DNA of 64,000 nucleotides from Strobilurus pachycystidiatus (taxonomy: Eukaryota; Basidiomycota; Agaricomycetes; Agaricales; Physalacriaceae). Under the pieces are notes generated by a model. It saw only the letters and a list, made by a program, of their open reading frames with translations. It was not told where the DNA came from and did not search any database. The translations under genes were made by a program, and so were the position numbers. Within the stretch, counting starts at the first letter, position 1, and each line of letters begins with the position of its first letter. Positions 8,090-43,116 of this stretch are shown one piece after another. The stretch covers positions 5,394,001 to 5,458,000 of the forward strand of contig JAHLMK010000001.1 in the NCBI GenBank assembly GCA_019915135.1. Reading direction: 5' to 3'.

Positions 8090-9553
8090 ATGGCCACCGA
8101 GATCGATAGCCTCCTACATCTCAAGACCCTTCTTTCATCTGCAGTAGACACTGTCGTCGCTGAAAAGACTTCATCCCCGTCTTCCGTCAGCCTGCTAGAA
8201 CACACTGCGCGCCAAACCGCAATCTCGGCGGCTGGTGCGCTCCTTGCTCTTCTGCACGATCCCGGAGAATGGGTAATGGAGGTCGCGGCACAGGTGTGTT
8301 TCACTGTCCCGGGATTTCGCCGGCGCTGACTGAAGACAGTATCTTGAATCGCGGGCGCTACATGCGGCTTGTCTGGCCAAGATTCCAGAGATAATACACG
8401 ACGCCGGAGGTATGCTTGACTTGGACACGATAGCGCTGAAGGCTGGATATGACAAGGATAAGTGTGGTAAGGTCTCGTTTTTGTGTGTCATTCCAAGATC
8501 TGAAGCGGTGTAGGGAGAATTATGCGTCAGCTTGTGTCGACCCAGATCTTCAAGAAAACGTCCCAAGAGCCAGAGATCTTCGCCAATAACTCCATCAGCA
8601 AGGCCATGGTACGGAACTCGCCTCTGGAAGATTACGTTGATCTGTAGTGCGTGAATCTTCTGATCTCGTCAGATTTAAGCATCTGATGTGGCCGTCTTTT
8701 ACAGCGCAAGCGAATGGTATGCAGGGTCGCATAACATCTTGCCATGTCTGCGAGATCGTTCGACGGATATACGCGACGCACCTTTCGCTAGAGACACCAT
8801 TCTCAACGATGGTAAAAGTACGTGGTGGGAGTACAATGACAGACATCCGGCGCGACACGATGTCTTCGGCAACGCCATGGGTTAGTGATTACTTTCTTAC
8901 CTACTTCCCCGGGTCCGTGACTGATGCCAATTTCAGCTGGGAACACTATTGCCTCAACAGGAGCTGTAATCGCCGATTATCCATGGAGTCGCCACGAGCA
9001 CATCGTCGACGTTGGTTCTGGAGTTGGAAACCTCACCTTGGCCATCCGGGAGAAATTCCCTCGTGCGAAGATCACACTCCAAGACCGCGAGTCTGTGATG
9101 AACCAAGCGCGTTCTGTATGGTCCTCGAACTCGGACAACGTCGAGTTTCAAGTTCACAATTTCTTCGAACCCAATCCTGCTGTCGGCAAGGACGCCTATG
9201 TTCTACGCCACATTATCCACGACTGGGATGATGCGTCCTCTGTCAAGATTCTCTCAGAATTGAGAAAGGACCTGGCACCTCATTCGCGCGTTTTAGTCCT
9301 AGAGGCACTGTTGGCTGAGACGGGATATTCTGAGCGATACATCCACATGAAGAACCTCAACATGATGAATTTGGTGTACGTTCTTTTTCCGATAGGCCTG
9401 ATTGTGATAGTATCTAATTTGGCTTGCTACAGAAATGGCAAGGAACGCACGGTTGCCGAGGTGCGAAGTCTCGTAGAGCAAGCAGGACTTCAGGTGGTCA
9501 AAGTGTGGTCTTGCAGAGGCTCAATGAGCGTAACCGAGTGCGCATTGGCATGA
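8090..9553 (+). CDS. SAM-dependent O-methyltransferase (COMT / sterigmatocystin OMT-like)
   Basis: Exon 1 is 8090-8293 (68 codons, start in a CCACCATGG context). Exon 2 starts at 8340 after ACAG. Later exons carry GRIMRQLVSTQIFKKT, FANNSISKAMV and VFGNAMAGN. Then comes the Rossmann core HIVDVGSGVGNLTLAI (SAM motif I), DRESVMNQA, and AYVLRHIIHDWDDASSVKILSEL, in which HDWDD carries the usual catalytic His. LNMMNL and NGKERTVAEVRSLVEQAGL complete the fold, ending TECALA before a TGA at 9551. The protein is about 430 residues, as expected for plant-COMT-like fungal OMTs acting on phenols or hydroxylated products. Its position about 10 kb from a candidate RiPP precursor suggests, but does not prove, a tailoring role. 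Confidence 0.9.
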
Positions 9554-9965
9554 AATTATTGTAACGGAGAGACTGCTGCTAGTAGCTGTGACCGCGAAAC
9601 ACGTTATCTTTGTACTGAAGTTGGCCCATTGTGAGCAGTTATGAGGATTCTTTCTCGAATCTCGAGCAAGGAGTCGTCGTTGATAATCACTTCGAACCAA
9701 CGACTTAGTACGACTCACGACGATTCGTGAAGTTTGAGAGGTACTTTCGAACTTGTAATGCTTAGACCAAAATCAGGATTTCGAGAATCTTCTCTGTCAT
9801 AGCTGTACTCCGGAAGAGACTTATAGTCATGGCAGGATCGAACGACATTGTAAACTTTCTAGCACGTATTACAGTGAAAGTGTTTCAAGCATAGTGGCAT
9901 ATGTAAGGCATGACGGGCATCTGGGGCATACTGTAATTTATAAAGAGCGGGCATAGAAGAGAAGC

Positions 9966-10677
9966 TCAAGTCGACTTGATCTTCTTGAAATTCGGATAAG
10001 GAGACTTGTACGCTCGCTTCAAGCGAGACCCGTCAACAGGCGCGGTGGCGATCTTTGTTTCCTGAACCGGCACGGAGTTCAGTTTTGGGCTGCTCCAGGG
10101 AATTATTCCACATTTGCGAATAGATCGACAACTTCTAGCGTGCTTGCCAAGCTCCGATAGATCCCAGTGTTCAAATGCACACTCGGGCCAGCAGCGTTGC
10201 ATGAGGTTGGTGTGGAGGAGTTGTATGTGGACTTTCAAGGCGTGCTTGTCGCTTGGTCGGAACAAGCAACCAGGGCAATAGCCAAATTCCGCAAGACGTG
10301 GACTGGAGGAAAGGAGTTAGAGTAGTTCTGTGCAATTGACTGGAAGACACATACTCATAAATGTTTTGGCGTTGGATAGCATCATATTTTTTTGAATGTG
10401 GTTTGGAGTGGTTGTGATTATGACCCTTTGCGCCTCCCTCTGTCTCGAAGGATCGATTGCACGAGGCTAAGGAACACTTGAAGGGCTTTTCTTCTTCGTC
10501 GCGTAAGCACTGTGGTAGTGGTGAGTAAGTTACAAATGACGCCAAAGAGCCACGTACTGCCGCGCTGCCTTTGTGGACTTTGTGATGTTTGCTTGTACGC
10601 TTCGCAGCCTCATCGACACGCTTGTGATCGCGTTTCGATTTATTTCCACTGGGTCGCTGATGAGAAAACCGAGTCAT
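9966..10677 (-). CDS. Small C2H2-type zinc-finger protein
   Basis: Three exons (10677-10558, 10509-10355, 10302-9966) join in frame to 203 residues. The N-terminus is very basic (SKRDHKRVDEAAKRTSKHHK), like a nuclear localisation signal. Three possible zinc sites follow: CSLASC with a HNHNH cluster, CPGC-x12-H-x4-H (CLFRPSDKHALKVHIQLLH), and a CWPEC-x12-H-x3-C variant. The C-terminus is again basic (RLKRAYKSPYPNFKKIK). It is probably a DNA- or RNA-binding protein. Being between the methyltransferase and the dioxygenase, it could regulate the nearby cluster, but nothing in the sequence proves that. Confidence 0.7.
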
Positions 10678-11301
10678 TGTAGAGAGAGAGTGGGCTATAG
10701 ATGTGCAGTGGCTTCATCCTGGGGAGAGAGGCCATGCTTTTATACCCTATACGCGACTCGATGACAGGCTCACTTTGTCGAACAATGCGACTGTCACCTT
10801 CCAATCTGGGCGCGGCAACCCTGGCACGTATGTTTTGAGCAACTTTGTTCGGCACGTGCTGTCACATTGACCAGCGAAAACGGTCAAAGAGCAGGCCTCG
10901 TGGGTTGCTTTGATCGCAAAGACCACCAGGCCGACTGATATGGCAGTTCAACGTCCGAGCAGGTTCGTGAAGGACATCCCAGTTCGCGCAGTGAGGATGC
11001 CCCCGAAGCGTCGAATGAAGCTACAGTAGGTCGATTGACTCATTGAGTAGCCCAGTTCAGTAGTACCGAGTTGCGAGGTTCACTGGTGGCCCTAAATTGT
11101 GCCACTCCCGACAAAGTCAAGGTAAACAAGTGTTCATTGTTTGCGACCGAGGATTTGGATAACTAGGACTATAGCAGCGCATACATGATACAATACCCAA
11201 AGTGGGGGGCATTCTTGGGCGATAAACACCTGCAAGTCTCTCCCTCGATATCTAGCTCTCGTTCAGTTTTGAGGAGTCCTTCGAACAGTTTTCACTCACC
11301 A
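10678..11301. other. Intergenic stretch, nothing recognised
   Basis: About 620 bp between the zinc-finger gene start and the 3' end of the next minus-strand gene. No convincing coding exon, RNA gene or repeat was found. A possible promoter for the zinc-finger gene lies at its left part. Confidence 0.4.
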
Positions 11302-11800
11302 CTACGTCAAACAAATCAAAAACTGACGCAGGAGGGGATTGGCCTTGGCCTTCTCCTTCGGAAACATCTTCTTCGATTTCTTGATGTACTTCGACAATGC
11401 CTTGGGATTGTCAAAGACGCCAGTCTTCATGACCCTCCCTGCGGCAGCAGCATCGGCCAGGTCGACAAGGTTGACGAATTTGCCAATGAGAGCCTAAAAA
11501 TGAATCTATCATTACCGAAGCCAGGAAAGAGAACCTGGGAGACCGTACTGCTTTACATTGCCGGATACTGGTGAACGACGAGGCACTCGGTACACCGACG
11601 GTCAAACAGATCTTCTGCCATGCTTGTAGGGACGACACGTTGGCGCCAAACGTGCTGGCGAAGCCATTTTGAACCTCCTCGAGGATGTACAGTTTCCGGA
11701 GGCGCTTGTATTCTTCGCTTTTCTTCCTCAAACCGTCCGACAATGCAATCGCGCGAAAGCGCTCGACGATACCGACGGTGCTGTCAACTGGGGGTGGCAT
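11302..11800 (-). CDS. Small basidiomycete orphan protein (two exons)
   Basis: Exon 1 (11800-11549, 84 codons) begins MPPPVDSTVGIVERFRAIAL and contains LRKLYILEEVQNGF and FGANVSSLQAWQKICLTVGV. The intron 11548-11494 (GTACGG to TTTTTAG) is phase 0. Exon 2 reads ALIGKFVNLVDLADAAAAGR, then FDNPKALSKYIKKSKKMFPKEKAK, and stops at 11302, giving 147 residues. The FGxNxxSLQxWQxxCxxVG / INxxDLVDA-type layout resembles a family I remember from many Agaricomycete genomes with no assigned function. No signal peptide or membrane segment. Confidence 0.75.
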
Positions 11801-12185
11801 CTGCGCTGGATGAGATGGAGGTGGGTGGATGAAAGGTATGCTTCGTCGCCTCAAGCGCCTTACATGTAAAAGCGGCATTGGCCCCAGAAGCTCAAGCTCA
11901 TTCGCCGTTAAGCAGTAACTATGACTGTTCAGCCCTCGTGAACCCAGCCCCATGCTGCGGCCACCCTGCTCATATACTTGAGGACTTGATGCATGAAGTT
12001 GGAATGCAGGGAGGATGTTCACACTCAACCGAAACCGGACGGACACGAACAAGCCTAAGCGCCCACCTGCCATCGAAGACGAGGACTTACGCGATCGAAC
12101 GCATTGATCTTAACTGTGAGTTGAAGAGTGGACAGTCAAACTTCATCCATTCGCACGTCTTGATAAATACATTCCTGCCTTCGCC

Positions 12186-13571
12186 TTACTTCGTAGCACC
12201 GTTCTTCCTTCTGATCTCTGGCTCGATCGGGAAGCGCTGTTCCTCGGGACCCACAGAGTACAACCTCTTCCAAATAGGCGCCAGAGCCTCGGGCGTCTTC
12301 CAAGCGAGCTCGTCGTTCCGAAGCCATAGCCTAATGAGGTGACGCCTATTCACGTGTAAGAGCAAAGAACAAAGACAGGGAACGAAACGAACCTATGCGT
12401 CTCGTCATCCCTAAAAGCATCCCTCGCATGCAACAGTCCCATACTGTTGATATACTGGATGTCGCCCTTCTGGAAATTGAGCGCCAGAGAAAAGTTCTCG
12501 GCAGTAAAGTGCAGCGCATCCAGCGCTTCCGCCTGCGCTTCTGTGATGGGCGGAATGTTTGGACTGCGCTTCTGGGAGTTGTATCCAGTGAAGTGGCGAC
12601 GGGAGTACTGTATGACGATGTGTCCGTCCTCGTTGTACAGGAGAGGACGCTCAGTGTACCCGGGATTGCCGCCAAAGCTTTGAGCAATCCTCGTCAGACT
12701 TGGACTCCGATGTAGGAAAGAGAGAAAATATGCACCTGTCCAAAGGCCACGGCTGCGACAGCGTGTGTATGAGATCGGGGCGCGTCCTGGCGATCTCGTT
12801 GTAGACACGCCCGCCGCTACTGATCCTCGACGTCCCACCTTCCGCAGCACGTTCAAGAGCCAGCAGCGCGATGAGATCGCCAACATCGGTGTGGAACACC
12901 TGCTTGTCCGTGGTATAGGCTGCGTTTCCTATACCGCCCTTTTCGTGTGCATGACTGACCGTGAGGTCCTTAATATGAGCGAGGACCGCCCCGGTACCGT
13001 CTTGTTTACCTCGTGCGGAGCCGACGTGGGCTGAGATGCCTAGAGACGTGATTTTAGCCATCAGAACGCTCAACCACCGATTGTATAAGGACCTACCAGC
13101 GTACACGATGGCCAGGTCGGTTTTGGAGTACTTGTCGACGTCGATGGAGCGTATGACGAAGAAACCGCGACCGGAATAGAGTTCTTGGGACAGACCCCAG
13201 AGAACGGGACCCAAAGCCGGAAGCGGAAAAGTCTCGCGACTAATGTAGCCCAAAGACTGGTTCAGGCCTTGGAGTAGTCGTCAGTAGATATCGCAAATCT
13301 GATTAGGAGATGATCTACCTTTGAAATGCTCGAGGGCATTGTCGATTTCATTGAACTGCGCCTCGCTGAGCTGGTAGACCCATTGTTCCTCATTCGTCCA
13401 ATCCTTCCCTTCCCAGACGTTTGGACCATCAACTTGGGCAGGGAAGCCGTTTGGCAGCGGCACAGAAGGAAGCGTAGGATCCAGTTGTAGGCGGCGAGCG
13501 GTGCGCAAGCGATACTTTTCGAGGTCAGGCTGGTAGGCGATGTCGGGTTGTTTAGGGATCGGAAAGTCCAT
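12186..13571 (-). CDS. TauD/TfdA-like Fe(II)/2-oxoglutarate dioxygenase
   Basis: About 410 residues in roughly six exons, start at 13571 (MDFPIPKQPDIAYQPDLEKY), stop at 12186. Conserved pieces: GPNVWEGKDWTNEEQWVYQL, SRETFPLPALGPVLWGLSQEL, GRGFFVIRSI, VLAHIKDLT, and VFHTDVGDLIALLALE, which supplies the HxD iron ligands. NFQKGDIQYINSMGLLHARDAF supplies the distal His, and RHLIRLWLRNDELAWKTP supplies the Arg for 2-oxoglutarate. The last intron ends just before RHLIRLW and joins in frame. This matches a common fungal clavaminate-synthase-like family of hydroxylases. It is a plausible oxidative tailoring enzyme of the neighbouring candidate cluster, though the same family also occurs alone in fungal genomes. 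Confidence 0.9.
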
Positions 13572-15131
13572 GTTGAATAATGGTACTACAATGTGGCCCG
13601 ATCTGCCTTTATAGGACGCCAGCCCCACAACCGGGGTAGAGAGAAAGCATAACTGACGCCATTGGGCCAAGACTTGGCAAGATGGTTGTTACTGGATGGT
13701 GACTGCGAGGGTGGGATGGAACAGACTTTTAGAAGAGGGCTTTGCGGTTGTTGTGAGTTGATCGTGAAGAAAAGAGGCCAGACTGCTGAGTAGACGGTTC
13801 AGTCGGAATACCGCATGATGCAAGTCATAGATGGAGCTTTACTTGCACGATGGAGTGTCGAGTGCGAAAATGTTGTCTTTCGAAGGAGAGAACGCCCGCC
13901 GCAAAAAGGATTGTGTGGGAGCGAGGGTCATTCATGAGCTCTTTGAGCGGTTCATAGCTGAAATATCGCATGACCATGAGGTCGAATATGAGGCGGTCCG
14001 CCGCCATGGATGTGGCAACAGATGCGTCTCGGGACCCGATTCATTGGTAAAGCGCGGGACAAAACGGAAAATTGGTACCCCGGTGGACGTGAAAACGAGT
14101 GGACCTGTGAGGTGATACTTCGGCTGTTAGACAACCTCCAAAGTGTCCGGTCCCATGGCACTCTCGAAGTAGTGTTTCCTTGGGCCTGGGCCTATCTTCC
14201 CTCGGAGAGACTGGCTACCGTGATCGCAGCCATGCCAGTGGATTTTCCGCGCGTTTGGTAGGTGAGATCTCTCGTCATCCTCCGGTATCACTTCGTCATG
14301 TGCGCGTACCGTGTCGGTCGTGGTTCTCCACGCAAATGTCGTCTGCAGAAAGGGGAAAGGCGGGTGGAAACGGAGGAGAAGGGTGAGGGGGATGGCCGCG
14401 CCCATCTCGCCCAAAAGATTTGTACGTCTATAGTGTATGCTGATGCTTGTCAATGTCAGAAAGCACAAGGCCGTCGCAATCCTATCACGTACCACACGTA
14501 CCCATCCTTCACGATGACACTTCTACAGCGACCCAAACATGCGACCAGATGGCAAAGAGGTTTTGCGCGGAGACTACCGCCCACTTTGTGCGCAGAGTCG
14601 ACACTGATTTTGGAACCGTCAAGGCGCCTCGGGGCCGGCTGGGCGATGTGCATCGGCTTCGACTATGTCGGTTGGTGGTGGGCAGTGCGCGTCGGCTGCA
14701 TCAATACACTCTGTGGGCATTTGTTTGACTCTGAGTGGCCAGCTTTTCAGTATTCCCCACTGGATAAGATACCGGTTATCTTCGCTGTCTCGATTGACAG
14801 TCGAAAAGAAAGCCGTAGATACCCGGGCCCCACCCCGCCTGATCGCGGCGGAAGAGTTCGGGATTCGGCGCGCGCTCACACATACACTGACAGTACGGCT
14901 GGAGTCCACTGATGGTATGTTGCAATACTGAGACGATGAAAGTGTATAAAAGCGTCGGCCGGGCAGATCCCTGCTATCGCGATTCGCGAATCGTTGAGGC
15001 TTATCACCTCCGATAAGAGCTGCCGGCAAATTGGACTATCAGCCTTGTATCAGCCTCCCATAAAGCGGACGCGCTTTCTTCTGACGGCAGCTCCGAATTT
15101 TGTTTGTCTTTGACGACCTCCCACGCCAAAG
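13572..15131. other. Intergenic stretch without a supported gene
   Basis: About 1.56 kb. Both strands have open frames of 60-216 codons (for instance 14262-14912 plus, 14619-15029 minus), but none shows a family motif, a signal peptide or joinable exons. It lies inside the candidate cluster, so an unrecognised or broken gene is possible. The right end holds a TATA box for the next gene. Confidence 0.4.
14945..14951 (+). promoter_or_regulatory. Putative TATA box upstream of the hydrolase gene
   Basis: TATAAAA about 185 bp before the ATG at 15132, in a short AT-rich patch. The assignment is by position and consensus only. Confidence 0.4.
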
Positions 15132-16352
15132 ATGATCTTCTCAGCCTACTTGTACGCGTTGCTGGCATGGACTGCTGCCACGACCGCCACGCCTTTCCTA
15201 CAACAGGACACTGTCGATGACATTCAAGTCGAGTTTGGGAACTATTACAACTATTGGAAGTACTCTCAGAGCTCTGGCTTTGGCTTGACGCGTGGAAACA
15301 CGAATAACACGAAGACCATCAGCTCTGGAACCAAGTGAGGATTGTCTCGAACTCGGACAGTTGTGGCGGTACGCTGATCAACGCGTCGAAGGGGACCTAT
15401 ACACATATCACCAGAGAACAGCGCGCTTGTCATCATCGATATGCAAAGTACGTCTATTGTGACAAGTACCCTTTCATTCTCTGACTACCTTAAACCTCCA
15501 GACTACTTTCTCAACCCATCCTACAGTGGCACGAACTTCACCGATGGCCTCAACGCCGTGCAGCCTGTGATCGACTCTGTCAACGCGTTCCGCTCCGCTG
15601 GCGCGAAGGTAATCTGGTGCCAGTGGGGTCTCAACGCGTATGACATCCTCAACATCGGGCCAGCTTACAAGTATGGCTTCGCCTCCAGCACCGGCGCGAA
15701 CAACACCAAGAACCCCGCGGACAGTCTGGGTGCAGAGATGGGGACGTACGGTGGGGTTGATTATGGGAAGAAGTTGATGGAGGGATACTATAACACCGAG
15801 GTGGGTTATCTCTGTCATTCTCTGAGCGGCCGCGATGCTGAATAAGTGGGATTATAGCCTTACGGTCCGCTTGCGAAACTTGCAGAGGAAGGAATCGCTG
15901 CTGGAACTGATGTGTACTTCCCAAAGAGTATGTTTTCATACAACTCAACGAGCCTTCGTTTGACGAGTCGTAGACCGGCAGAGCTGTCTGTGGGGAGCAC
16001 AGACCCCCATGGGAATCTACACTGAAGCGAACGAAATCTCCACGCTCTTCTTCGTCGGCGTGAATATCGATCAGTGAGTTCAGCCTCCCAATCTCTTTCT
16101 CACATTATCATCTGGTCTGCGCAGATGCGTATATGGATCGTTCAACGACGCATACTACAAAGGCTATGATGCTATCATCATTCAGGACGCGTCGGCGACA
16201 ACCTCTCCAACATATGCCACCGAGATGGTCCTCTACAACGCCAACTGTACGCTACAATCTCATCTTGGTCTTGCTATAGACTGAAAACTGTTCCAGTGCA
16301 CGGTTTCGTAACGAACTCGACAGATATTGTCAAGGGCATGATGTCAGCGTGA
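15132..16352 (+). CDS. Secreted isochorismatase-fold cysteine hydrolase
   Basis: Exon 1 (15132-15334) begins MIFSAYLYALLAWTAATTATP, a signal peptide. An intron (15335-15391) leads in phase to GPIHISPENSALVIIDMQN, which carries the family's catalytic Asp. Later exons carry FRSAGAKVIWCQWGLN, DVYFPKN with the expected catalytic Lys, and FFVGVNIDQCVYGSFNDAYYKGYDAIIIQD, whose Cys is the nucleophile. The stop is at 16350-16352 after KGMMSA. The D-K-C triad is complete. Such extracellular isochorismatase-like hydrolases are frequent in mushrooms and act on amides, N-carbamoyl groups or similar bonds; the substrate is unknown. It is convergent with the UstYa-like gene and sits inside the candidate RiPP cluster. 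Confidence 0.85.
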
Positions 16353-16779
16353 GCTATTTGAACACCATCCAAGTAGATACAATGTACCGAACATAGACTT
16401 CGACATGCGACACGTCTTCTGATAGTCTGCTCGAGTCTCTCAGTGGACCGCTTCCGGAAGAGTCGGTCCGAGCCGCCTATACCGCATTTGGAAATTTCGG
16501 CTTTTGCTTCCTCTCTCCCAACTTGCCATCTGTATACACAGACTGGCGGCTCAATTCTACTTCTCGTCTTTTCACGGGTGATAGTCAATAATCCTGAAAC
16601 TTTGACTAGCTGCCGAGCAGAGGGAGGCGCGGCTCAGGGTACTAGTCAGAGTAGTATAAATTGCGCTCGGGACACCGCAGAACACCGTCCGAACAATCTC
16701 AAGACTCTCGCTGTGGGCGACGACTGCTCTTCATACTAGGCGAGTCAAAACCATCCATGTATTGTATTATTCTTCTGAC

Positions 16780-17638
16780 CTAATCCCAGCTCCCAGTAGT
16801 TTTGTTCATGTACTGGAGCTGGTTCTCGGTGACAAAATCGAACACCCTCTCCCAATTCCTGCAGACATGAACGATGCCTAGACCGTCTATGCCATGCTCG
16901 CTGATCATCGGATCCAGCGTGGTGTCGCTGGCGCACAAAACGGTCTGCCGTAGTAGATTAAGGCAATGCCGAGTGTGGTGTCCCGCATCGTTCTGCACAA
17001 TGGCGTCTCGAATCATCTGCAGACAGTGCATCTGATGGAACATGGCGATCCCTAGGAAAATCTTCAGCTGTCGTAGCTCCATCCAAATGGCGTTCATACC
17101 GAATTTTCTTCCTGCTATATCTGTTAGCGCTTTCGCGGATTTGTCGAGAATGAAGATACTTGCCGTCGGGGCCAAGCTTTACGAATCCGTTGCTTGCTGG
17201 GAACAAGTCGGTCGTTCGCCAATCTCCCCAGGCATCGAAATCGGCGAGCCCAAAACTGTCGCTATTCTCGACCTTCAGACCGACGGTGGGTAGGTATAGC
17301 GGAAGTTCGTGCGGATAGTCATCCCCGACATAGCCTACAAAGTCAGTAATCAGTTGCGCATCTTCAGTCTCTTTTGTGGAAATCATACTGAAGTGACTAT
17401 CGTCTCCCTGTTGCTTTTCCAGTATACTTTCGCATGAATCTCGACGATTTCGAAATACGTATACTGCGGAGAGGTTGAGCAAGACGGACAGCAGGAGCCC
17501 GATGTAGGCAACGAGTAGAGGATTGCGCATGAGGGCCCAGAAGAAGTGGTTGGCCGTATCTTGCATTTGACGGTCTTTAGTGTTCTCCGCTGAATTCGGC
17601 CACACCACAGATTGTGGGCTGTGACGGATACACTTCAC
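16780..17638 (-). CDS. UstYa-like (DUF3328) membrane oxidase
   Basis: The N-terminus (start 17638 or 17566) has a single membrane helix, NPLLVAYIGLLLSVLLNLSAVYVF. It is followed by WGDWRTTDLFPASNGFVKLGPDG and the two signature motifs of the DUF3328/UstYa family: FHQMHCLQMIRDAI (HxxHC) and HHTRHCLNLLRQTVLC (HxxHC again with a downstream Cys). It ends VHVCRNWERVFDFV and a TAG at 16780. UstYa proteins catalyse oxidative cyclisation of Tyr-containing core peptides in ustiloxin, phomopsin and asperipin pathways. This placement, 2.2 kb from a repeat precursor with Tyr-rich cores, fits that role. The exon junction near 17.05-17.19 kb is uncertain and may contain an 8-nt microexon. Both HxxHC motifs are intact. 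Confidence 0.85.
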
Positions 17639-17836
17639 CTAATGACCTCCGAGTACACCTGGGCGCTCATATCGTTAGTGGGTCAAGTTACCCCATTCAT
17701 TTAGGCCGCCCATTTCTCTATCCCTCGTGTCTTGTGGCTGTGGCCGTCACGGTAATCTACCATATCCAGAACGAATGTTTTCCCAAAGTCACTTTCAATC
17801 GCACTTCATTCTTCCCCGCCCACTTTCAGACTCTCA
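17639..17836. promoter_or_regulatory. Short divergent intergenic region
   Basis: About 200 bp between the start codons of the UstYa-like gene (leftward) and the type II membrane protein (rightward). It is probably a shared bidirectional promoter, inferred only from spacing and orientation. Confidence 0.45.
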
Positions 17837-18836
17837 ATGGCTCGGGCTCAGTACACGCGACTTGCTGATACGGGTTCCAACGAGGACGTGGAAGAGTACA
17901 AGGACCTGGATCCCGACGCGCGTTATGCTATTCATCGTGTCGACAGTCTTGTTCTTGCCAGCATCATCGCCCTCCTGGCAGTCGTTGCTGCGGGTGCTTT
18001 CCATCTCAGTGTCCTTACGGCACCTTCAGGTATACAGCGCCTCCCGAGCAGGCGGGAGGTCGTATCCAGCCTTGTGCTGGGCAACATCGACAAGAACCTC
18101 GAGGAAGGCCGGCAGATCATTCATCAAAAACACAAGACGATGCACCCAATCAGTGAGTTGGACTCGGATCGTTTCTTTTTCGAATGAGCCTCAGCGTCTA
18201 CTCCAGATGGAAAGATGTGGTTCCCCGCTTCCATGATTCGCGTGAGCGCTGAAGAGCCCGACTATTCGTTTGAGGCTGGATCGCACATCGTCCTCAGTCC
18301 CACGGTAAGGGCGTTTCCCTACTTACTATCCTTTCGATTTGACGCACATATCTTGACCTAGGACTCGATGATCTACCACTGGGAGTTCAACAGCAGCTGG
18401 CCGAGGTGCTACATATCAGGCTGGGTGTCGCCTCTCCAGGAACTCATTGAAGGCGGCAAGTCCTTCTCCGCAGACGGAGACGTCACAGCCATCGAAGTTT
18501 GGAACGTAGACTATCCGCTGCCAACGAGACCTGCTTCATTCAGCTGGAACAGCCACCCAGAGCGTCTTTCGCTCCTTGGTACTGTGAATTTCACAGACTA
18601 CGAACTTCAAGGCCGTATGCATACCAGCGATGGAAAGGAGCTGAAGGAGCCCACACCCCTCTTCGATTGCAGCGATCGGGGCACACTAACTGTCGAAATC
18701 GCATGCAAAGCGTGCCGTCTGGAGTTTCATCAAATCTTTTCTGATCCTCCACTTGGTGTGTACACATCCCCGTTGTCCGTCTCCTGCAGTCTTGACATCC
18801 GCCCTGACAGGTTTCGAGCTCATAGAATTAGCATGA
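17837..18836 (+). CDS. Type II membrane protein with luminal/extracellular domain, basidiomycete family
   Basis: Start MARAQYTRLADTGSNEDVEEYKDL, then a cytosolic acidic head and one helix (LVLASIIALLAVVAAGAFHLSVL). The later exons read GKMWFPASMIRVSAEE, SMIYHWEFNSSWPRCYISGW, VTAIEVWNVDYPLPTRPASFSWNSHP, LLGTVNF and FDCSDRGTLTVEIACKACRLEF. An in-phase GTGTGT..ACAG intron precedes the end GFELIELA (stop 18834-18836). The order Cys, (I/V)xVW, LLGT, FxC, xLACxxCxVxF, DPPLG resembles a family of uncharacterised Agaricomycete membrane-anchored proteins that I recall; no enzyme motif is known. It is divergent from the UstYa-like gene and 1 kb upstream of the repeat precursor on the same strand, so a role in the cluster is conceivable. 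Confidence 0.7.
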
Positions 18837-19752
18837 CGAAGCCAATACTGTATGTACACATCGCCCTGGCCGGCTCTCTTTGATATGCATTTACGTGTTG
18901 ATGAAGTTAATATTGATATTGAGCATCAGTAGTGCACTGACTGACTCAGATGCACACGAGCCATGTATGGCGGCCACGTCTCATCAAGAGACACAGATGC
19001 TTCCATGTATGACCTGACAGATTGTTGCTATTGTTGGACGTTGGATAAATTCCTCGCTGAAATGGTCTGATTGTCGAATTGCCTTGTCATCGGAAACTGC
19101 GAGTACAGACCTGTAAGGGCGCCGCGTAGCTAGCCCGATAACCTGGCCTCCTTCGTATGAGCAGGTCTCGATACAGACGCTTGCTCATTACAGAAGGTCG
19201 GTTACCTGGCTACCGCGTAGCTCGCAATGAACTTGAAACAGAGTACATTCTTGTCGTACATCTGTCGGCATAAAGACTGGCTCAAACTTGAGGCAGACCT
19301 ATGAATGTCTCCGCAAGCACACTCTCACAGATACACTCTCACAGATCGCCTACACGTATCATGTATGTTATCCACGTCCCCATATTGGCCCGATCATTTG
19401 GTAGTACTGTGGGGGTGGACTGTGGATTACGCCACATATCACATTCACATACATCAGGATGATGCACACATACGGCTATGATAATTGAACAGCTAGTAAC
19501 ACTCCTTATCTTTGGGCGCCATCGGCAGGGTTAGACCTTAGTAAAAGAGAAAGTTCCGTTAGGGTGTAGGCGAGCGCTGACCTCCGATTTCCCCGATCTG
19601 AAATGCGGACTCTTGTTTCCAAGCTTGTTTCTGAAGTCATCTGTTTCCGGTCAGTTTCAGTACTTGAGTGTCAAGCGCCCGTAAATCTATTCGCATGCCA
19701 ATTCCAGATACGTTACGGCTCATACCCCTCCTCGGATGACCGATTCTGTAGC
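18837..19752. other. Intergenic stretch upstream of the repeat precursor
   Basis: About 0.9 kb with no supported gene. It contains a short direct repeat around 19318-19342 (ACTCTCACAGAT twice). The right end grades into the promoter of the precursor gene. Confidence 0.4.
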
Positions 19753-19758
19753 TATAAA
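19753..19758 (+). promoter_or_regulatory. Putative TATA box of the RiPP precursor gene
   Basis: TATAAA 63 bp upstream of the ATG at 19816, a normal spacing for a strongly expressed fungal secreted-protein gene. Assigned by consensus and position. Confidence 0.55.
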
Positions 19759-19815
19759 GAGAGCTCGTCAGATTTTGAAGACCTCAGATTCAACCAAGAG
19801 TCCTCCCCAGCAGCC

Positions 19816-20212
19816 ATGCGTCTTACTCCCGTCTTTGCTTACCTCGTTGCGTTGCTTTCCGCCGTGGCTATTGCCCATCGTAAGAAGATTTTCTGTATCT
19901 GGACTATGCAACTGACTCAGGTCACCTGCAGCTGCCGACAAGAGGGCTGGCGTCCTGAACTATGAAGAGCCATACTCCCCTAGGGAAGCTCTCGAGAGGC
20001 GCAAGGGCGTCCTGAACTACGAAGAGCCATACTCCCCCAGGGAAGTTCTCGAGAGGCGCAAGGGCGTACTGAACTATGAGGAGCCATACTCTCCCAGGGA
20101 AGCTCTCGAGAGGCGCAAGGGCGTACTGAACTATGAAGAGCCATACTCCCCTAGGGAAGCTCTCGAGAAGCGCAAGGGCGTCCTGAACTATGAAGAGCCA
20201 TACTCCCCCTAA
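19816..20212 (+). CDS. Kex2-type repeat peptide precursor, candidate RiPP (dikaritin-like) precursor
   Basis: Two exons (19816-19879 and 19932-20212; intron 19880-19931, GTAAGA to GCAG) give 114 residues. Residues 1-20 (MRLTPVFAYLVALLSAVAIA) are a signal peptide. HPADKR ends with a dibasic site, after which come four 19-residue units and a fifth, 12-residue unit: (A/K)GVLNYEEPYSP followed by REALERR, REVLERR, REALERR, REALEKR, then stop. Thus every copy of GVLNYEEPYSP is bracketed by RR or KR, the Kex2 cleavage signal. This is the architecture of UstA-type precursors and other Kex2-processed repeat proteins. The neighbouring UstYa-like oxidase and MFS exporter fit a cyclised-peptide pathway. 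Two Tyr per core are the likely modified residues. Alternatively it could be an unmodified secreted peptide or pheromone-like signal. Confidence 0.85.
19946..20209 (+). repeat. 57-bp in-frame tandem repeat (4 full, 1 partial)
   Basis: Units at 19946-20002, 20003-20059, 20060-20116, 20117-20173 and a 36-bp partial at 20174-20209. Differences among units in the GVLNYEEPYSP block are all synonymous (GTC/GTA, TAT/TAC, GAA/GAG, TCC/TCT, CCT/CCC). Amino-acid changes occur only at the first residue, the linker (A/V) and the cleavage site (R/K). Confidence 0.95.
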
Positions 20213-20880
20213 ACGAGAGGCCGCCGAGAGACTTCAAGGGCCAGAGCAGCTTTTGTTCCGACAGAAACATGAGGTTAGTCCATCGTCTTTGCATTCTTTG
20301 TCCTCATGGGTAATGACCTCACCCACTGGCAGATTCGGGTGTATGTCTATATCTAGCAGTGCTAGTGCGAGATTTGGAATGTAATTTGCGTGTTTGAAAT
20401 ATGTAATCTGGCAGTCCAGAAGATCGAGTTTCGTTGTCGTTGCGGAGTCTGTCATGTACCATCACTGGAGTCTGGCTATCATCTGAGGTTGCATTTGCGC
20501 TCGTACTACCTGGAGTAAAGTCCGAAGGTTAGCGAGTCAGTCTGACCCACATCAAGGCAGTTTCTTCTTGAACCACGGCGCGTGGAAAGGCGAATGAAAG
20601 TTCAGTCAAGGTCCGGTTATCGAAACCCTGTGCCAAGACGCCGGACGGTCAAGTTGCCGGAAGAAATGCTCGGGACTGTCAGACCTTCTGAACCGAGGTG
20701 TTCATACAAGACGCCCCGCAAAAGACACCGCACTCCGACAAGGCATCGAAACTAGATGTCGATCGAATTGATTTATGGCCCCGAGTCATAAAGTCAAAAG
20801 GCATACAGGTTCAAGCGAAGTGTGTGCTCTGGTGAGTCTGAAAATGCGTTGATAAATTAATGCATATACGTGACACAGTT
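20213..20880. other. Convergent 3' region between precursor and transporter
   Basis: About 670 bp holding the 3' untranslated regions of two convergent genes. The frames here (for instance 20190-20384) are short and have no support. Confidence 0.4.
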
Positions 20881-22664
20881 TCAACCAGTCTTTGTCCGCA
20901 AGTTCTTCCAGAAGACGGTGAACAGAATTACTCCAATCCCAGTGATTACGATCTCGAGGCCCGTGTAGTTTATCATGCCTACGTCGAATCCGTTTCCTCC
21001 CCAGACCGCCCCAACAACCCTACCGGTGTAGTTGCTGTACTGGATGGCGAGGGATGTCCGGCCGTTCCAGTCCTGGGGAAGCTGCTTGCTCAGTACACTG
21101 AGCGTTACCGTGCTCGCGAGATTGAACCCAAGTGCGACTAGCCACCAGCACACAAACATCGTCCAAAATGTGACGTGATGCGTCGCGAGCAAAGAGATAA
21201 AGATAAAAAGGCCGGAAAGTCCAATCGAGACGCCAAGAAGAAGTATGTGTCTGTCTTCTGTCCGCCGGGCGAAGAGCAGGTTCAAGACGAGGAATGGGAA
21301 TGCGATTATGCCGCCGAGTGCGATACAGTTGCCGGCGCTGAATGGAGACAGCTGTAGCCCAGGTTCGTCCGTGAAGTATACGGATATATTCAGTTCCCAA
21401 GCACCTGTTTGATAGGCTTGAGCCACAGGACAGAGGATTACCAGGACGAATACCTAGGACAAAGAAGCACGTCATGGCCATCCAACACATGCAAACGACT
21501 ACGCCCCACTGTGCGAAAGTCATCCTTCGGTGCTGATAGAATGAAGATTCCACGAGCGTCTGCTCAATCGCGAGTTCTTCCTCAGCAGCTAATGCATTGA
21601 TCGGATCATCAGGCGATGGCAGCTCTGCTGGTGGAGGAGTGGTGGGTGTTGTTGGACGTTCGTCGACATCCTCGAACCAAATGTGAACGCAGACCCAGAA
21701 GGCAATCCAGACAACGGACATGATCCAGGCTGGACTAGTGTAACCATTGAAGACTTCGTTCGATGTTCCAAGTCTTGAAAGAAGCCCCCCGAAGAAAGGT
21801 CCGGCGCTCATACCGAGACCTAAAGGGTGGTAAGTGACCGTACCTCATCGGGGTAAGACGCGCGTGCCTTGACCAAGGACCAGACAGCTCGCCAAGGTGG
21901 TGCGTCGGCGAATGCCCACTATTCGCCCATCAGAGCAATATCGCTTGCAGTACATCCACCTATGACTGATGAGAAACCGACTAGTAGTAGTGAGTCGGAC
22001 AGGACTGAACTTACATAGAAAAAGATATCCCGCTAACCATTCGGCCAATGAGAATGAGATAGAGGAACCGAGCTCTGTATGCGAGAGCATACAGAACGTG
22101 CCCAAGAATTGATGCGGCACAACTGATGTGAAGAGGAAGCTTGTAGCGGCCTAGCAGCCGAACAAATGAATAAAACTGCAGAGAAAAGGAGCAAAATCGC
22201 TTACTATGATCAAATCTCATCATCGGAAGTAGAGCGAGCCCAGAAAAGAGGGTTGGAATGCCAACCACTATGCCAGAAAATAACGAATCGCCTCCGAGGA
22301 ACTCGACATAGTCGTTCGACGAAGAGATGGTGATAAAGAACGAGACCTAGACTCGCTTATCAGCCGGTGTTCGAAGTCTTTTGGCGAGCTGCAATCGTAC
22401 CTGTAACAGCAGGTTCGCTGAGATGATAATTATCATTGAAGACGTCTTCGGGAGTTTGAACTCTTCGTCATTTTGCGGTCGTCTGGTATGTGCTCTGAGC
22501 CCAAACATTGAGAGATATCGATGGGAGTCGGCAGAGCATACGCACGTGTATAAGTAAAACCTTCGAATGATGAATGCCGTTACCTCGGAGTCCGAGGACT
22601 TGATGTGTATCGTGTGCTCCTGGACCGTCGCGGACTGGTCGCGGAAGACAGACCGGTTTGACAT
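20881..22664 (-). CDS. MFS transporter, likely exporter of the candidate cluster
   Basis: Start at 22664 (MSNRSVFRDQSATVQEHTIHI), stop at 20881 after FWKNLRTKTG. Exons read KLPKTSSMIIIISANLLLQ, NDYVEFLGGDSLFSGIVVGIPTLFSGLALLPMM, YKLPLHISCAASILGHVLYALAY, LYLILIGRMVSGISF, FMYCKRYCSD-RIVGIRRRTTLA, MSAGPFFGGLLSRLG, a central acidic loop with PTTPTTPPPAELPSPDD, then MTFAQWGVVVCMCWMAM, GNCIALGGIIAFPFLVLNLLFARRTEDR and ILLLGVSIGLSGLFIFISLL. The layout of two six-helix halves with a long loop is typical of a fungal MFS subfamily (YCR023C-like). Convergent with the precursor gene; export of the mature peptide is an inference from location. Exon borders between 22.4 and 21.8 kb are approximate. Confidence 0.8.
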
Positions 22665-24284
22665 GACGTCAAACGGCAGGTAGTCGTAACAAGTGCATGT
22701 TCTCTCAACCTGAGTTTTGGGAGGCAGATTGCTGCGCCACGAACACATGCATTGACCTTCCTTCCTCGATATCGCTGCCTCGTATCACGACTTTCTGACC
22801 GCAATCTCCTTTGCCATCGCCTGGATTGAGTTTCAAAGTTCTAAGCAGTACGACAGTACATACCCAGAGAGGTGAGAAAACGTCGGCGAGGGTCATATAC
22901 CGAATTCCTGCCAAGGAGCGTCGTGGGATGGAATAGATATGAAGATAGACACCGGCGATAGAGTATGAATGGAGGGCTTCCGCGTCATGGTGATGTGGAA
23001 CAGCAACGCGTCATGTTGATATTGAACAGTAAGGATTGAACGGGAGGAAGGATAAATCATGATGATCGCTGATACAACCGTGAGAGAGGTGTGCGTCATG
23101 CGGCCACTGAAGCTGGAGGAATTCTATAGCCGAGGTGCGCATCTAGGCGTTAAGCTGGTGGATTTCTAAAGCCGAGATACGCATCTAGGTGTTCGGGAAC
23201 TATACCTTGAAACTGGTACTGAACGTGGGGAACGCCGGAGTCGTCATCGACTGTGTAAACCACCGAAGACCATGGATAACAATCTCGCTCGCCGCTGAGT
23301 TTCTCATGAGCCCCAGTAGGCTCTCGGAGGACTAATCCGGAGAAGAAAGTCCTGAGACTTCACGTTCCCGATGACTATGGCGCGTCGAGGTTGTGAAGAA
23401 TCCCCAGAGTCAACGGATCTTCGAGAAATTCTGCATTGAGCAACATTGGAAGGCGCGTGAGCTCCAAAGCCGAGTCTTGGCAAAGTGTAGCTGTGGCAGT
23501 GCGCTTGAAAGTTCGTGGCAAGCAAGTGGCAAGGGAAGAAAGTGAAGAAGAGCACAGCCCCTTGGAATAGGACCACCATGTGATCCGGCACCGAGCCTTT
23601 TCGCGGCCCAAGGGGATAAGTACCTCATATGAGGGAAACTAATACGGTGTGTCGGCGCTCCCAGCAGCGTGCGGCGCCCACAAAGAACCAGTGGGTCTAC
23701 ACAAGACGAGTGTCGGGCAAACGCAGAAAATAAGCCGGATGCCGACGTAGAGCGGAGCTCTCCGAATCCCCGCAGAAAATAAGTCGGGACGGGTGTATAA
23801 TCATAAACACCACGCATATACATAATTAAAATGCAAACGCCCCACGATGAGCAGGAGCCCAGTGGCGACTGCGAAGGCTACGAGCCAACCGCGAGGCAAG
23901 ACAGAACATCGGAAAAACCGGAAGGGGGTACAGCCACCCCAAACCTTCTCTGACAAGTACCACACCGATCATGCAGAAAAATACGAATAGAGCCCAACAC
24001 GGTAGCCGCACCCGCGACGAGAGCCAAAGCCGCTCGCGCACCCGAGGCGAAAAACAAAAGGACCGACAAAGGTCCAGAGAGCGAAGCGTCAGCAGAGCTC
24101 AGGAAGCAGACCGAAGTAGGAAAATGCCAACCGCACAGTCGAGCCGCTAACGACCTACATCTCAGAACGGGGCCGCAGAAACGAAGAAACCCAGGCCGAG
24201 TACCCGAGGCCCGACACCACCTTCACCCCGAGCAGGAGACACAACATCGCGTCCAAACCGAGGACGGACGGCGTCTACACCAAA
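22665..24284. other. Intergenic stretch; boundary to transposon-rich DNA
   Basis: No convincing gene in 1.6 kb. Two short direct repeats are visible. A 30-bp sequence with CCGAG..CGCATCTAGG occurs near 23128 and 23169, and GCAGAAAATAAG occurs near 23720 and 23771. Base composition becomes GC-rich toward 24 kb, where the retroelement-like ORF begins. The minus-strand frames 23304-24069 look like unselected GC-rich sequence. Confidence 0.4.
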
Positions 24285-38366: not shown

Positions 38367-40010
38367 TGTAGGAGTCTATGCCAGGACTTCCAGTCACAGC
38401 ACAACGACCAGAGAGACACACGGAGAAACTACCTTAACGCAGGCAAGTCTCCAGGACTAAGGGATACGCGCCTTTAGGACGCGGTATGATCGACCGATCA
38501 TACTCCTTAACTCCGAATATCATTATCCAAGCGTTGTACTCTTAAAACCAGGAGTTCATTCAACCGTGTCGGTCATGCAACGACAAGTGCCTACCAGAAA
38601 TAGCACTATGGAAAGTACCCAGGCAGGAGATACTCTACCAAGAAGGCTCAAGGAGTTTACTCGTGCTAAGTCAGAACTCGCGCGACCAAGAATAGATCAA
38701 AGGAGAAGATCTCTCTTCCGGGCCATGGCGCCTTCGGAATAGTGATCTCCGCTCCGACGCCCCGCACCAAAGAAAACGGACTTCGATCCGCCGCCGCCGA
38801 TCACTAAAGATAGACCTGGCTAAAAGGCCCGATCATGGACCTTGTACCTCACTGGAACTCACATATTGATGTGGCGTCACTGAGTTGTCAAAAACGAATC
38901 ACCTTCCAAGCGCTAAGGATAAACCCAACCAACGCCTAAAGACACGAAAGAACTCATTAAGGAGTTTTGCCAAGACAAGCGGAACCTCGGGAGACAGAAA
39001 TAGACTTAAGGAAGAGCCAGATCGGTGGTGTGGCGCACTTGGCGCTGACCAAGTGTTCAGTCTTCTCCCGGGTCGGCTGTTTCGAACAGGGATAGCCAAT
39101 CAGGACGCTAGTACAGAATGACTCGACCTCCGAGAGGCCCGACGAGTAGTAAACCCGCTTACAGTACAGAATAGTAGGAATAGTATAAAAGGCCAGAAAG
39201 TGCCAGTAGATAGGTAGCTTAGTGCCCCCACAGTATCCGCTAGTAATACGCAGTCGCTGTAGTGAATCTAACTCGAGTTTCGACTCAACTTACTCTGAAT
39301 TTGAGAGAACCCAAAAGACCTTGAAGGCCCCAAAAAGACCTTAGAACCATTTAGGCGATATCAGGTGTTAGCAAACTCCTTGAAGAACTCATAGGTTCCT
39401 ATCCTCCAAGTCACTAAGACAATACCAAACGACACCACTTGGCGTTAGACCCTTGTGTTCGTTAGAAGGCCGGGTTGCAAGTAGTTCTGCCTTGCAATCA
39501 CGCTCTGTTGTGAAGTATTCGCCTTTGAGGAGTTTAGTTGAGTTTGAACGAGTGTTGTTATCGTCTGAAACACCTTACGGAATCTTTGGTCCCAGTCCAA
39601 GACACTAGAAGTTTGGTTTAAGGACAAGGAAATCGCCTTACTTGGTAGCAGTCCAGTAGCATAAACACCTACGGTAGCGGCCTGCCATAAGACAATCACC
39701 TTGTACAAAAGAACGATCAATAAGAAGGAGCTACATTGCCTCGCGCTGTTTAAGGTCTCCGTACGTTGTGACTTCGGCCTACGACTTTCAGATTATCTTG
39801 TTCGACTTTGTGAATCAATCTCCCTACACCCCCTAAAACTACTCGAACGCAAGTTCGGAATACATCTCTATTGTTCCAATACCAAAAGTACTTGTTCCTT
39901 TGAACAACTACACCAGCCTCGCTCCCACAAGGAGTATTAGTGAGATATAAGGATAGATAGGATAGATTTCATAGTCCCCTTTTAGAGGTCTATTTCGAAC
40001 GTGCATATCA
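38367..40010 (+). repeat. Putative 5' LTR
   Basis: Begins TGT, ends CA, and contains AGTATAAAAGG at about 39181-39191. It is directly followed by TGGAGCCCACCGCGAGG (from 40016), which looks like a primer-binding site because it starts with TGG. No homologous 3' copy was seen, so the limits rest only on these signals. Confidence 0.4.
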
Positions 40011-41941: not shown

Positions 41942-43116
41942 TGAAGGAAGGGGTGCCTAGTGCACAGACTCCTCCGGAGAGCCAGTTGACTGTTCAAACT
42001 CGACAAAGTAATAAAGATAATCATTCCAAACCGGTTTCAACACCGGAAAAGATAAAAATACCTTGGCCGCGGGACCGGGTCTCCGTGGTAATACCTCCTA
42101 AAGCCCCGGTATCGCCAAAGGTAACCTTCACTAAACCTGAAGTCACCCAAGAAATACCTCCTGTGGATCAGGAAATTCTTGAGGAGATTCTGGCTATGGA
42201 AGAACCTGCGCCTGCAGTGCAGCCTAAGGAAGATTCAACTCTACCTTCGAGTACACCAACGAACCAGAAGACCTTACACCCTCAGCAGAAGGTCAAAAGT
42301 TTCCAACGCCGCAGCTTAGCGGAAGAGTTGCTACACAAGAATCCGAGCTGGAGAGAAGCATGGAAGTTCTTACTTCCGGAAGCTCTCTTAGCAACGAATC
42401 CTCCGTGGCAGCAAAGCATATCGGACTTCATTAGAAAACGAAATGCGCCGGTTTCGGTACTCCAACAGGAAGAATTGACCGAAACGGTACAAGACGACTA
42501 CCAACCGGAGTTATACTCAGTTAACTTACAAGCACGAGACAACTTGCCGATTGGAGGAATTGTAGTTCACGATGCGGTGGAACAGTTCATAAACCTCACT
42601 GGAGGGCAATATACTGGACCATTCCACATGACTACGGGAAACATTGCACCAGAGAACGCTGATCTAAGGACGTTCTGGCCTATGATAAACCGCAACGGAA
42701 AGAAGGAAAGTCTCATTGACGGGGGTTCTCAAATCGCCTCAATCTCGCTGAAAGCTGCGTTGGAACTAGGGGTTTCTTATGATCCCAACTTCAAAATAAC
42801 CATGGAAAGCGCGGATAAAGGACGGACTAGTACACTTGGGTTAGCCCGCAATGTACCCTTCGACTTCGAAGGGATTGTGTACTACCTCCAGTTGCATGTT
42901 CTGGAGGACCCCGCCTATGAAGTCCTATTAGGTAGACCATTCGAGATTGTATCCAATCTGGTAATTACGAACTTGTCCAATGGAAACGCCTTGGGAACTC
43001 TGACAGATAATACCAATGGCAAGAAGTTGACCATACCATCGTACCGACGAGGACAAATACCTAGGCATATGTTACCACCGGGGCAACAGGGTTTTCACCT
43101 GGACTCAAGGAAGTAG
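41941..43116 (+). CDS. Retrotransposon protease region
   Basis: Open frame starting MKEGVPSAQTPPESQLT with a Pro-rich linker, then the retropepsin-like domain: SLIDGGSQIASISLKAALELGVSY with D-G-G in place of the usual D-S/T-G, and YEVLLGRPFEIVSNLVITN near the end (the LLGRP motif). The stop codon TAG is seven codons after a GGGTTTT slip site. The overlapping start (TGATG) suggests expression coupled to Gag termination. Variant D-x-G-S protease motifs occur in basidiomycete gypsy elements I remember, so the enzyme may still be active. Confidence 0.75.
   Translation: MKEGVPSAQTPPESQLTVQTRQSNKDNHSKPVSTPEKIKIPWPRDRVSVVIPPKAPVSPKVTFTKPEVTQEIPPVDQEILEEILAMEEPAPAVQPKEDSTLPSSTPTNQKTLHPQQKVKSFQRRSLAEELLHKNPSWREAWKFLLPEALLATNPPWQQSISDFIRKRNAPVSVLQQEELTETVQDDYQPELYSVNLQARDNLPIGGIVVHDAVEQFINLTGGQYTGPFHMTTGNIAPENADLRTFWPMINRNGKKESLIDGGSQIASISLKAALELGVSYDPNFKITMESADKGRTSTLGLARNVPFDFEGIVYYLQLHVLEDPAYEVLLGRPFEIVSNLVITNLSNGNALGTLTDNTNGKKLTIPSYRRGQIPRHMLPPGQQGFHLDSRK
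43089..43095 (+). promoter_or_regulatory. Possible -1 ribosomal frameshift site
   Basis: GGGTTTT is a perfect X-XXY-YYZ heptamer in the protease frame (G GGT TTT). Slipping by -1 enters the RT frame, which is open from here (GGG TTT TCA ...). The protease frame stops seven codons later. Confidence 0.55.

What the first reader, a model, noticed from the sequence alone, without database searches (positions are those of the whole stretch)
8090..22664. Candidate UstYa-type RiPP gene cluster in a basidiomycete
A signal-peptide precursor with five Kex2-bracketed copies of GVLNYEEPYSP (19816-20212) lies 2.2 kb from a UstYa/DUF3328 protein with both HxxHC motifs intact (16780-17638), next to an MFS transporter (20881-22664). 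A secreted hydrolase, a TauD-like dioxygenase and an O-methyltransferase lie within 12 kb. In ascomycetes the precursor/UstYa/transporter combination defines dikaritin pathways (ustiloxin, phomopsin, asperipin). I do not recall a characterised product with this core sequence. The core, with two Tyr and a Glu-Glu-Pro, does not match the ustiloxin, phomopsin or asperipin cores as I remember them.
Basis: partly seen in the sequence, partly recalled or inferred. Interest (0 to 1): 0.92.

Follow-up and report, generated by a model that had tools for sequence, protein, structure and literature searches.

The report
Mushroom gene set for crosslinked peptides
A mushroom genome holds a small gene set, also seen in part in other mushrooms, that appears to make a chemically crosslinked secreted peptide with the help of a membrane protein not before linked to such pathways; the crosslink itself is still to be shown.

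Summary
The precursor (19816-20212) has five identical GVLNYEEPYSP cores; the UstYa gene (16780-17530, minus) has both HxxHC motifs. These genes and the MFS gene occur again 190 kb away, with GPEDYEEPYSD cores; methyltransferase, TauD and isochorismatase queries match nothing there. All 13 genomic matches to a YEEPYS-coding pattern fall in the two precursors (two of them in a piece cut off by an LTR element). Core copies vary only synonymously (12 of 12 codon variants); UstYa and the But2-like gene are under purifying selection. In other Agaricomycetes, 20 of 49 But2-like hits share a contig (equal length) with a UstYa hit; Mycena alexandri also has a GPLNYEEPYSP precursor on that contig. So this is a UstYa-RiPP module that works like a dikaritin pathway; with one UstYa, an MFS gene and no tyrosinase match nearby it most resembles asperipin's (recalled). 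Crosslink, expression and product are unproven. New points: the But2-like partner, a core recurring across genera, and a precursor scaffold shared with Tyr-less paralogues.

The parts
19816..20212 (+). Kex2-processed repeat precursor, 114 aa, signal-peptide-like leader plus five GVLNYEEPYSP cores; intron 19880-19931
   Evidence: four homologues (two Mycena, Stereum, one metagenomic)
16780..17530 (-). UstYa (DUF3328) oxidase, 198 aa; exons 17530-17389, 17334-17164, 17111-17100, 17051-16780; HQMHC and HTRHC motifs
   Evidence: 59 homologues listed
17837..18836 (+). But2-like type II membrane protein, 277 aa, divergently transcribed from UstYa; exons 17837-18152, 18207-18304, 18362-18755, 18811-18836
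   Evidence: its main exon has two matches in the genome
20881..22664 (-). MFS transporter gene (several exons, model not built), also beside the second module
16720..23504 (.). span of the DNA blocks similar to the second module at C1:5.224-5.236 Mb
   Evidence: largest blocks again

Best explanation
A compact Agaricomycete RiPP module. The precursor enters the secretory pathway (shown: signal-peptide-like leader and repeats; inferred: export). Kex2 cuts after the dibasic sites and Kex1 trims them (inferred from KEP biology). UstYa, with an N-terminal membrane stretch and two HxxHC motifs, oxidatively crosslinks a side chain in each core, most likely through one of the two tyrosines of the Y-E-x-x-Y-S motif (inferred). 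The But2-like type II membrane protein, whose predicted lumenal domain is a beta-sandwich, is a dedicated partner of UstYa, probably presenting the acidic core or assembling the enzyme (linkage shown, role inferred). The MFS protein probably exports the product (inferred). The Y-E-x-x-Y-S heart of the core is kept in every precursor homologue seen while linkers and flanks drift, so the product probably acts on a conserved target (inferred).
For: Second copy of the same genes with a YEEPYS core, 190 kb away. All 13 matches of the YEEPYS pattern lie in the two precursors or the split-off piece of the second. Core codon variants 12 of 12 synonymous, against 0 of 2 in the linker. dN/dS between copies, on exon pieces: UstYa exon 4 0.022/1.015, exon 2 0.048/0.797, exon 1 0.019/0.317; But2-like exon 3 0.054/0.459. 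Linkage in other fungi, by equal contig length: 20 of 49 But2-like hits share a contig with a UstYa hit, 18 of 36 named and 2 of 13 unnamed; successive locus tags in Sparassis crispa, Mycena chlorophos and M. venus; both on a 4,376-bp and a 1,676-bp contig. M. alexandri has all three genes on one 194-kb contig. In the 36 UstYa rows aligned, H114, H117, C118, H134 and C138 are invariant and H137 is in at least 90%. In this genome 2 of 2 Tyr-core precursors sit within 3 kb of UstYa; for 3 of 3 Tyr-less leader paralogues, on C3 and C12, no UstYa match was found on those contigs.
Against: No expression, product or enzyme test. The KEP peptides reported from Agaricomycetes in PMC9769878 are linear or minimally modified (abstract, discussion), and Umemura wrote that the cyclisation motif might differ between the phyla or cyclisation 'might hardly occur in Basidiomycota' (PMC7329392). 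29 of 49 But2-like hits share no contig with a listed UstYa hit, although many contigs are short and the lists incomplete. A precursor was found on only 1 of 18 named pair contigs, and the Stereum precursor is not on the contigs of its two listed UstYa hits. The MFS copies are younger (dS 0.16) than the UstYa copies, MFS has at least six places, and one search counts a TGA in the copy's matched stretch, possibly intronic; so MFS membership is less sure. The second precursor is split by an LTR element. The UstYa model was poor (pLDDT 53.8).
Confidence: 0.76

Rival explanations
1. The precursor yields linear secreted peptides, such as a pheromone-like or wall-related KEP peptide. UstYa and the But2-like gene form a separate conserved pair, and the precursor is only a neighbour.
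For: Agaricomycete KEP peptides reported in PMC9769878 are linear or minimally modified. The window precursor shares its 5' region, leader, intron and 3' flank with three Tyr-less paralogues that have no UstYa match on their contigs. Of 18 named contigs with the UstYa/But2-like pair, 1 gave a precursor hit.
Against: Both YEEPYS precursors lie within 3 kb of UstYa, and M. alexandri has the trio on one contig. Short repeat precursors are often not annotated, so absence from a protein database is weak. Cores, not linkers, are constrained.
Confidence: 0.13
2. UstYa acts here on the core without making a macrocycle (hydroxylation, dehydrogenation or similar); the peptide is modified but open-chain.
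For: That the UstYa family carries varied chemistry is recalled, from no call. The Y-x-x-x-Y spacing is unlike the ustiloxin, phomopsin and asperipin cores as recalled. The one tyrosinase match found in the genome is on another contig.
Against: Both tyrosines are kept in every repeat unit of the six precursors seen, as expected if one or both take part in a crosslink.
Confidence: 0.2
3. The larger 8.1-22.7 kb region is one cluster, with the methyltransferase, TauD oxygenase and isochorismatase-like hydrolase as tailoring enzymes.
For: They are recognisable genes within about 9 kb of the module.
Against: One exon query from each matches nothing in 70 kb round the second module. Without other genomes' DNA this remains a single comparison.
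Confidence: 0.12

Closest known systems
Dikaritins (ustiloxin, phomopsin, asperipin-2a pathways)
   Same: Signal-peptide precursor with repeated cores and dibasic sites; UstYa/DUF3328 with two HxxHC motifs; Tyr in the core; MFS gene alongside. One UstYa, MFS and no tyrosinase match nearby is most like asperipin-2a (its cluster content is recalled; that it has one DUF3328 gene is in PMC7329392).
   Different: Basidiomycete; core (G)xxNYEEPYSP; But2-like membrane partner; no product known.
Kex2-processed repeat proteins (KEPs) of Basidiomycota (Umemura 2020, PMC7329392; Le Marquer 2019, PMC6339444; Vogt 2022, PMC9769878)
   Same: Precursor architecture. Umemura counted 103 of 1680 basidiomycete KEPs with a DUF3328 gene within 15 genes, so this kind was already seen computationally.
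   Different: The term But2 does not occur in the three papers (0 in the listing), nor the core letters in any library paper. I saw abstracts, named sections and passages, not the supplements.
But2 C-terminal domain family (PF09792)
   Same: 28 of 38 aligned members match the profile at E up to 0.1, best 1e-7.
   Different: The window protein itself has no match. This subfamily has an N-terminal membrane stretch and is linked to UstYa.
Beta-sandwich carbohydrate-binding modules (8wab, 7vbo)
   Different: 15% and 13% identity; Foldseek TM only 0.36/0.51 for 8wab; a shared fold shows no shared function.

Membership tests
Dikaritin-type UstYa RiPP | secreted precursor with repeated cores and dibasic Kex2 sites | tested here: met
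   signal peptide by eye
Dikaritin-type UstYa RiPP | UstYa/DUF3328 protein with two HxxHC motifs next to the precursor (called class-defining in PMC12048977, passages) | tested here: met
   PF11807 62 bits, HQMHC and HTRHC, 2.3 kb away; in 36 aligned rows five of the six motif H/C positions are invariant and H137 is in at least 90%
Dikaritin-type UstYa RiPP | side-chain crosslinked cyclic product made by UstYa | not testable with these tools
   needs LC-MS and a UstYa deletion
Ustiloxin/phomopsin subgroup | cluster tyrosinase | tested here: inconclusive
   the only PF00264 match is at C7:525476; the search goes exon by exon and its counts are lower bounds
KEP | signal peptide and near-identical repeats separated by KR/RR | tested here: met
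   signal peptide by eye, not by a predictor
But2 C-terminal domain (PF09792) | match above the Pfam gathering score | tested here: inconclusive
   window protein no match; relative P0047 32.9 bits, over the 24.2 cut-off; P0003 19.2 bits, under it
Carbohydrate-binding module | sugar-binding beta-sandwich | tested here: inconclusive
   fold match only

The most novel reading that the evidence does not exclude
Mushroom-forming fungi share an old two-component crosslinking machine, UstYa plus an obligate But2-like beta-sandwich membrane subunit, that makes a conserved tyrosine-bridged peptide signal (Y-E-x-x-Y-S, mostly NYEEPYSP) rather than a fast-changing toxin. The KEP scaffold that carries it swaps core cassettes, so one gene family makes both crosslinked Tyr peptides and linear Trp-ended peptides.
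Probability: 0.2. Interest if true: 0.87.

Novelty: new variant of a known kind. Interest (0 to 1): 0.7.

Why it matters
No UstYa product from a basidiomycete turned up in the listings and passages I saw (searches), and one survey left open whether basidiomycete KEPs are cyclised at all. A recurring module with a near-fixed core gives a clear mass target and two genes to delete. If the But2-like protein proves necessary, UstYa enzymes in this lineage are two-part, which would bear on how to make them work outside their host. A core kept across genera, and in part across orders, points to a signal or housekeeping role instead of the toxin role assumed for dikaritins.

Tried and rejected
Considered and set aside: (1) methyltransferase, TauD and isochorismatase as cluster members: one exon query from each matches nothing in 70 kb round the second module. 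(2) Chance repeat: excluded. (3) One clean segmental duplication of all four genes: MFS copies have dS 0.16 against 0.3-1.0 for UstYa, and the UstYa/But2-like/precursor block is inverted relative to MFS, so MFS was probably copied or converted separately. (4) PF09792 search of the genome found nothing, nor in its controls, so it says nothing about absence. (5) UstYa fold: model too poor to use; no relative of either family among solved structures by sequence at E up to 0.1. (6) Repeat precursors round the other three UstYa matches (C1:6022316, C8:727817, C8:728830): my finder flagged no KEP-like frame in 20 kb at C1 and 20 kb at C8; two low-complexity frames at C8 were judged chance. (7) Species: not identified; the nearest named homologues are from Hymenopellis radicata (67% over 61% of the query, and 82%), so an Agaricales fungus is likely. 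(8) Which way the exchange between Tyr and Tyr-less precursors went: not decidable; the 3' flank of the second module's split-off piece is not above shuffles against the window's (score 24, best of 50 shuffles 24).

Full report
What is there. The window is C1:5394001-5458000 of an unnamed 51.8-Mb fungal genome. The precursor gene starts at 19816, has one short intron, and encodes MRLTPVFAYLVALLSAVAIAH, then PADKR, then five units of (A/K)GVLNYEEPYSP, four of them followed by REALERR, REVLERR, REALERR and REALEKR. UstYa lies on the minus strand at 17530-16780. Its second intron is of the GC-AG kind; I chose that model because it restores the LGPxGRxFG stretch of relatives such as P0050. The 198-aa product scores 62 bits against PF11807 and has HQMHC and HTRHC.

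A natural replicate. A DNA search found precursor relatives elsewhere. At C1:5.218-5.236 Mb, 190 kb away, lie a precursor with six GPEDYEEPYSD units and two more cores in a split-off piece, a But2-like gene (90% identical in exon 3), a UstYa (85 of 89 residues in exon 4) and the MFS gene (94% over 175 residues; 91% with one TGA counted in the longer match, possibly intronic). Similar DNA covers window 16720-18836, 19624-20206 and 20799-23504; exon queries from the genes at 8.1-16.7 kb match nothing in the 70 kb held round the copy, and the only other DNA match there is 255 bases similar to window 39773-40010. That sets the module's limits. The main But2-like exon has two matches in the genome, these two; the MFS exon has six. 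The YEEPYS pattern, with Ser as TCN, has 13 matches, all in the two precursors or the split-off piece; the reversed control has one.

Selection. The five window cores differ at 5 codon states and the six cores of the copy at 7, all synonymous, where about a quarter of random changes would be; the linkers show 2 changes, both amino-acid changing. Repeat copies may homogenise, so these are not independent events. Between modules, exon pieces of UstYa show dN/dS of 0.022/1.015, 0.048/0.797 and 0.019/0.317, of the But2-like gene 0.054/0.459 and of MFS 0.030/0.160. Both module enzymes have been kept; MFS was probably copied later.

Other fungi. UstYa has 59 listed homologues. Matching by equal contig length, 20 of 49 But2-like hits share a contig with a UstYa hit: 18 of 36 named ones, in 17 of 24 species labels, and 2 of 13 unnamed ones. 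Large contigs alone would be weak evidence. The strong cases are successive locus tags (SCP_0404750/0404760, HMN09_00980000/00980100, MVEN_01127500/01127600) and contigs of 4,376 and 1,676 bp that hold both. The pair is found so in Agaricales, Atheliales, Polyporales and Boletales (Hymenopellis, Piloderma, Sparassis, Leucogyrophana). The precursor profile found four proteins at E up to 1 (7,996 candidates scored): M. alexandri with three AGPLNYEEPYSPDE units, on the contig with both other genes; Mycena sp. CBHHK59/15 with YEEEYS, YEEPYS and YEEPYS units, on a contig with a But2-like gene; Stereum hirsutum (Russulales) with YEIGYS twice and YEEPYS once, not on the contigs of its two listed UstYa hits; and a 921-bp metagenome contig with YEEDYS and YEEPYS. 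The last two have E near 1e-3. So Y-E-x-x-Y-S is kept in every unit seen, and YEEPYS in at least one unit of each.

Shared scaffold, different cores. Three more paralogues (C3:989546, C12:418098 minus, C12:420690 plus) share leader and intron with the window precursor at 75-80% DNA identity and the 130 bases upstream at 68-76%; the second module's precursor shares 69% and 68%. Their 3' flanks align with the window's far above shuffles (scores 59-71, best of 50 shuffles 22-30), while the second module's does not. Their cores differ and lack Tyr: PANSDW-like units or DDDRKLPAER units. No UstYa match was found on C3 or C12. So 2 of 2 Tyr-core precursors sit beside UstYa and 0 of 3 others do; the numbers are small. 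In PMC9769878 a Coprinopsis KEP with Trp-ended cores gave linear peptides when expressed in Pichia, and many basidiomycete relatives with Trp-ended cores are mentioned (passage). This is a within-genome contrast for Umemura's idea that linear KEPs gave rise to cyclic ones (PMC7329392, abstract), though the direction here is open.

State of the second module. Its precursor is split by an LTR element: direct repeats of 419 bp, 99% identical, at C1:5217943-5218361 and 5223488-5223906. A search with that end region scored 40 places in the genome, the element's own two included. It may thus be failing, while the window's module looks intact.

What was known. DUF3328 genes near basidiomycete KEPs were counted before: 103 of 1680 (PMC7329392, section 7). 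Pleurotus has 16 UstYa-like genes, six of them developmentally expressed (PMC8893723, passages). PMC9233826 and PMC12048977 (passages) list dikaritins under ascomycetes. A search for the core letters found 0 papers, and of the 11 papers listed for But2, ustiloxin, DUF3328, KEP and RiPP (three or more) none holds But2. The library leaves out most subscription journals, and no supplements were seen. What asperipin's cluster holds, and the ustiloxin and phomopsin cores, are recalled.

Verdict. A real UstYa-RiPP module, repeated in this genome and in part conserved across Agaricomycetes; a new variant of the dikaritin kind by gene content. The crosslink itself remains to be shown.

Noticed in passing
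G000 C3:989546, C12:418098 (minus), C12:420690 (plus): Three Kex2-repeat precursors share leader, intron and flanks with the window precursor but carry Trp-ended or other Tyr-less cores; no UstYa match on those contigs.
   Followed up: partly
G000 C1:5217943-5223906: An LTR element with 99% identical ends sits inside the repeat array of the second precursor, with a likely 5-base target duplication read by eye.
   Followed up: partly
window 17112-17163: UstYa intron of the rare GC-AG type.
   Followed up: yes
G000 C1:5227 kb (second module UstYa): By eye, the second UstYa reads R where a nearly invariant G stands just before IAMFHQMHC; the gene may be weakening.
   Followed up: no
G000 C8:727817 and C8:728830, C1:6022316: Two further UstYa matches about 1 kb apart and one more elsewhere, with no KEP-like frame flagged in 20 kb each.
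   Followed up: partly
window 43065-46976: Retroelement polyprotein frame with RNase H and integrase zinc-binding matches.
   Followed up: no
window 8090-16600: O-methyltransferase, TauD-like oxygenase and isochorismatase-like genes beside the module, not matched near the second copy.
   Followed up: partly
G000 C1:966031, C1:1026355, C1:5496266, C3:1389529: Four more close copies (66-76%) of the MFS transporter exon.
   Followed up: no
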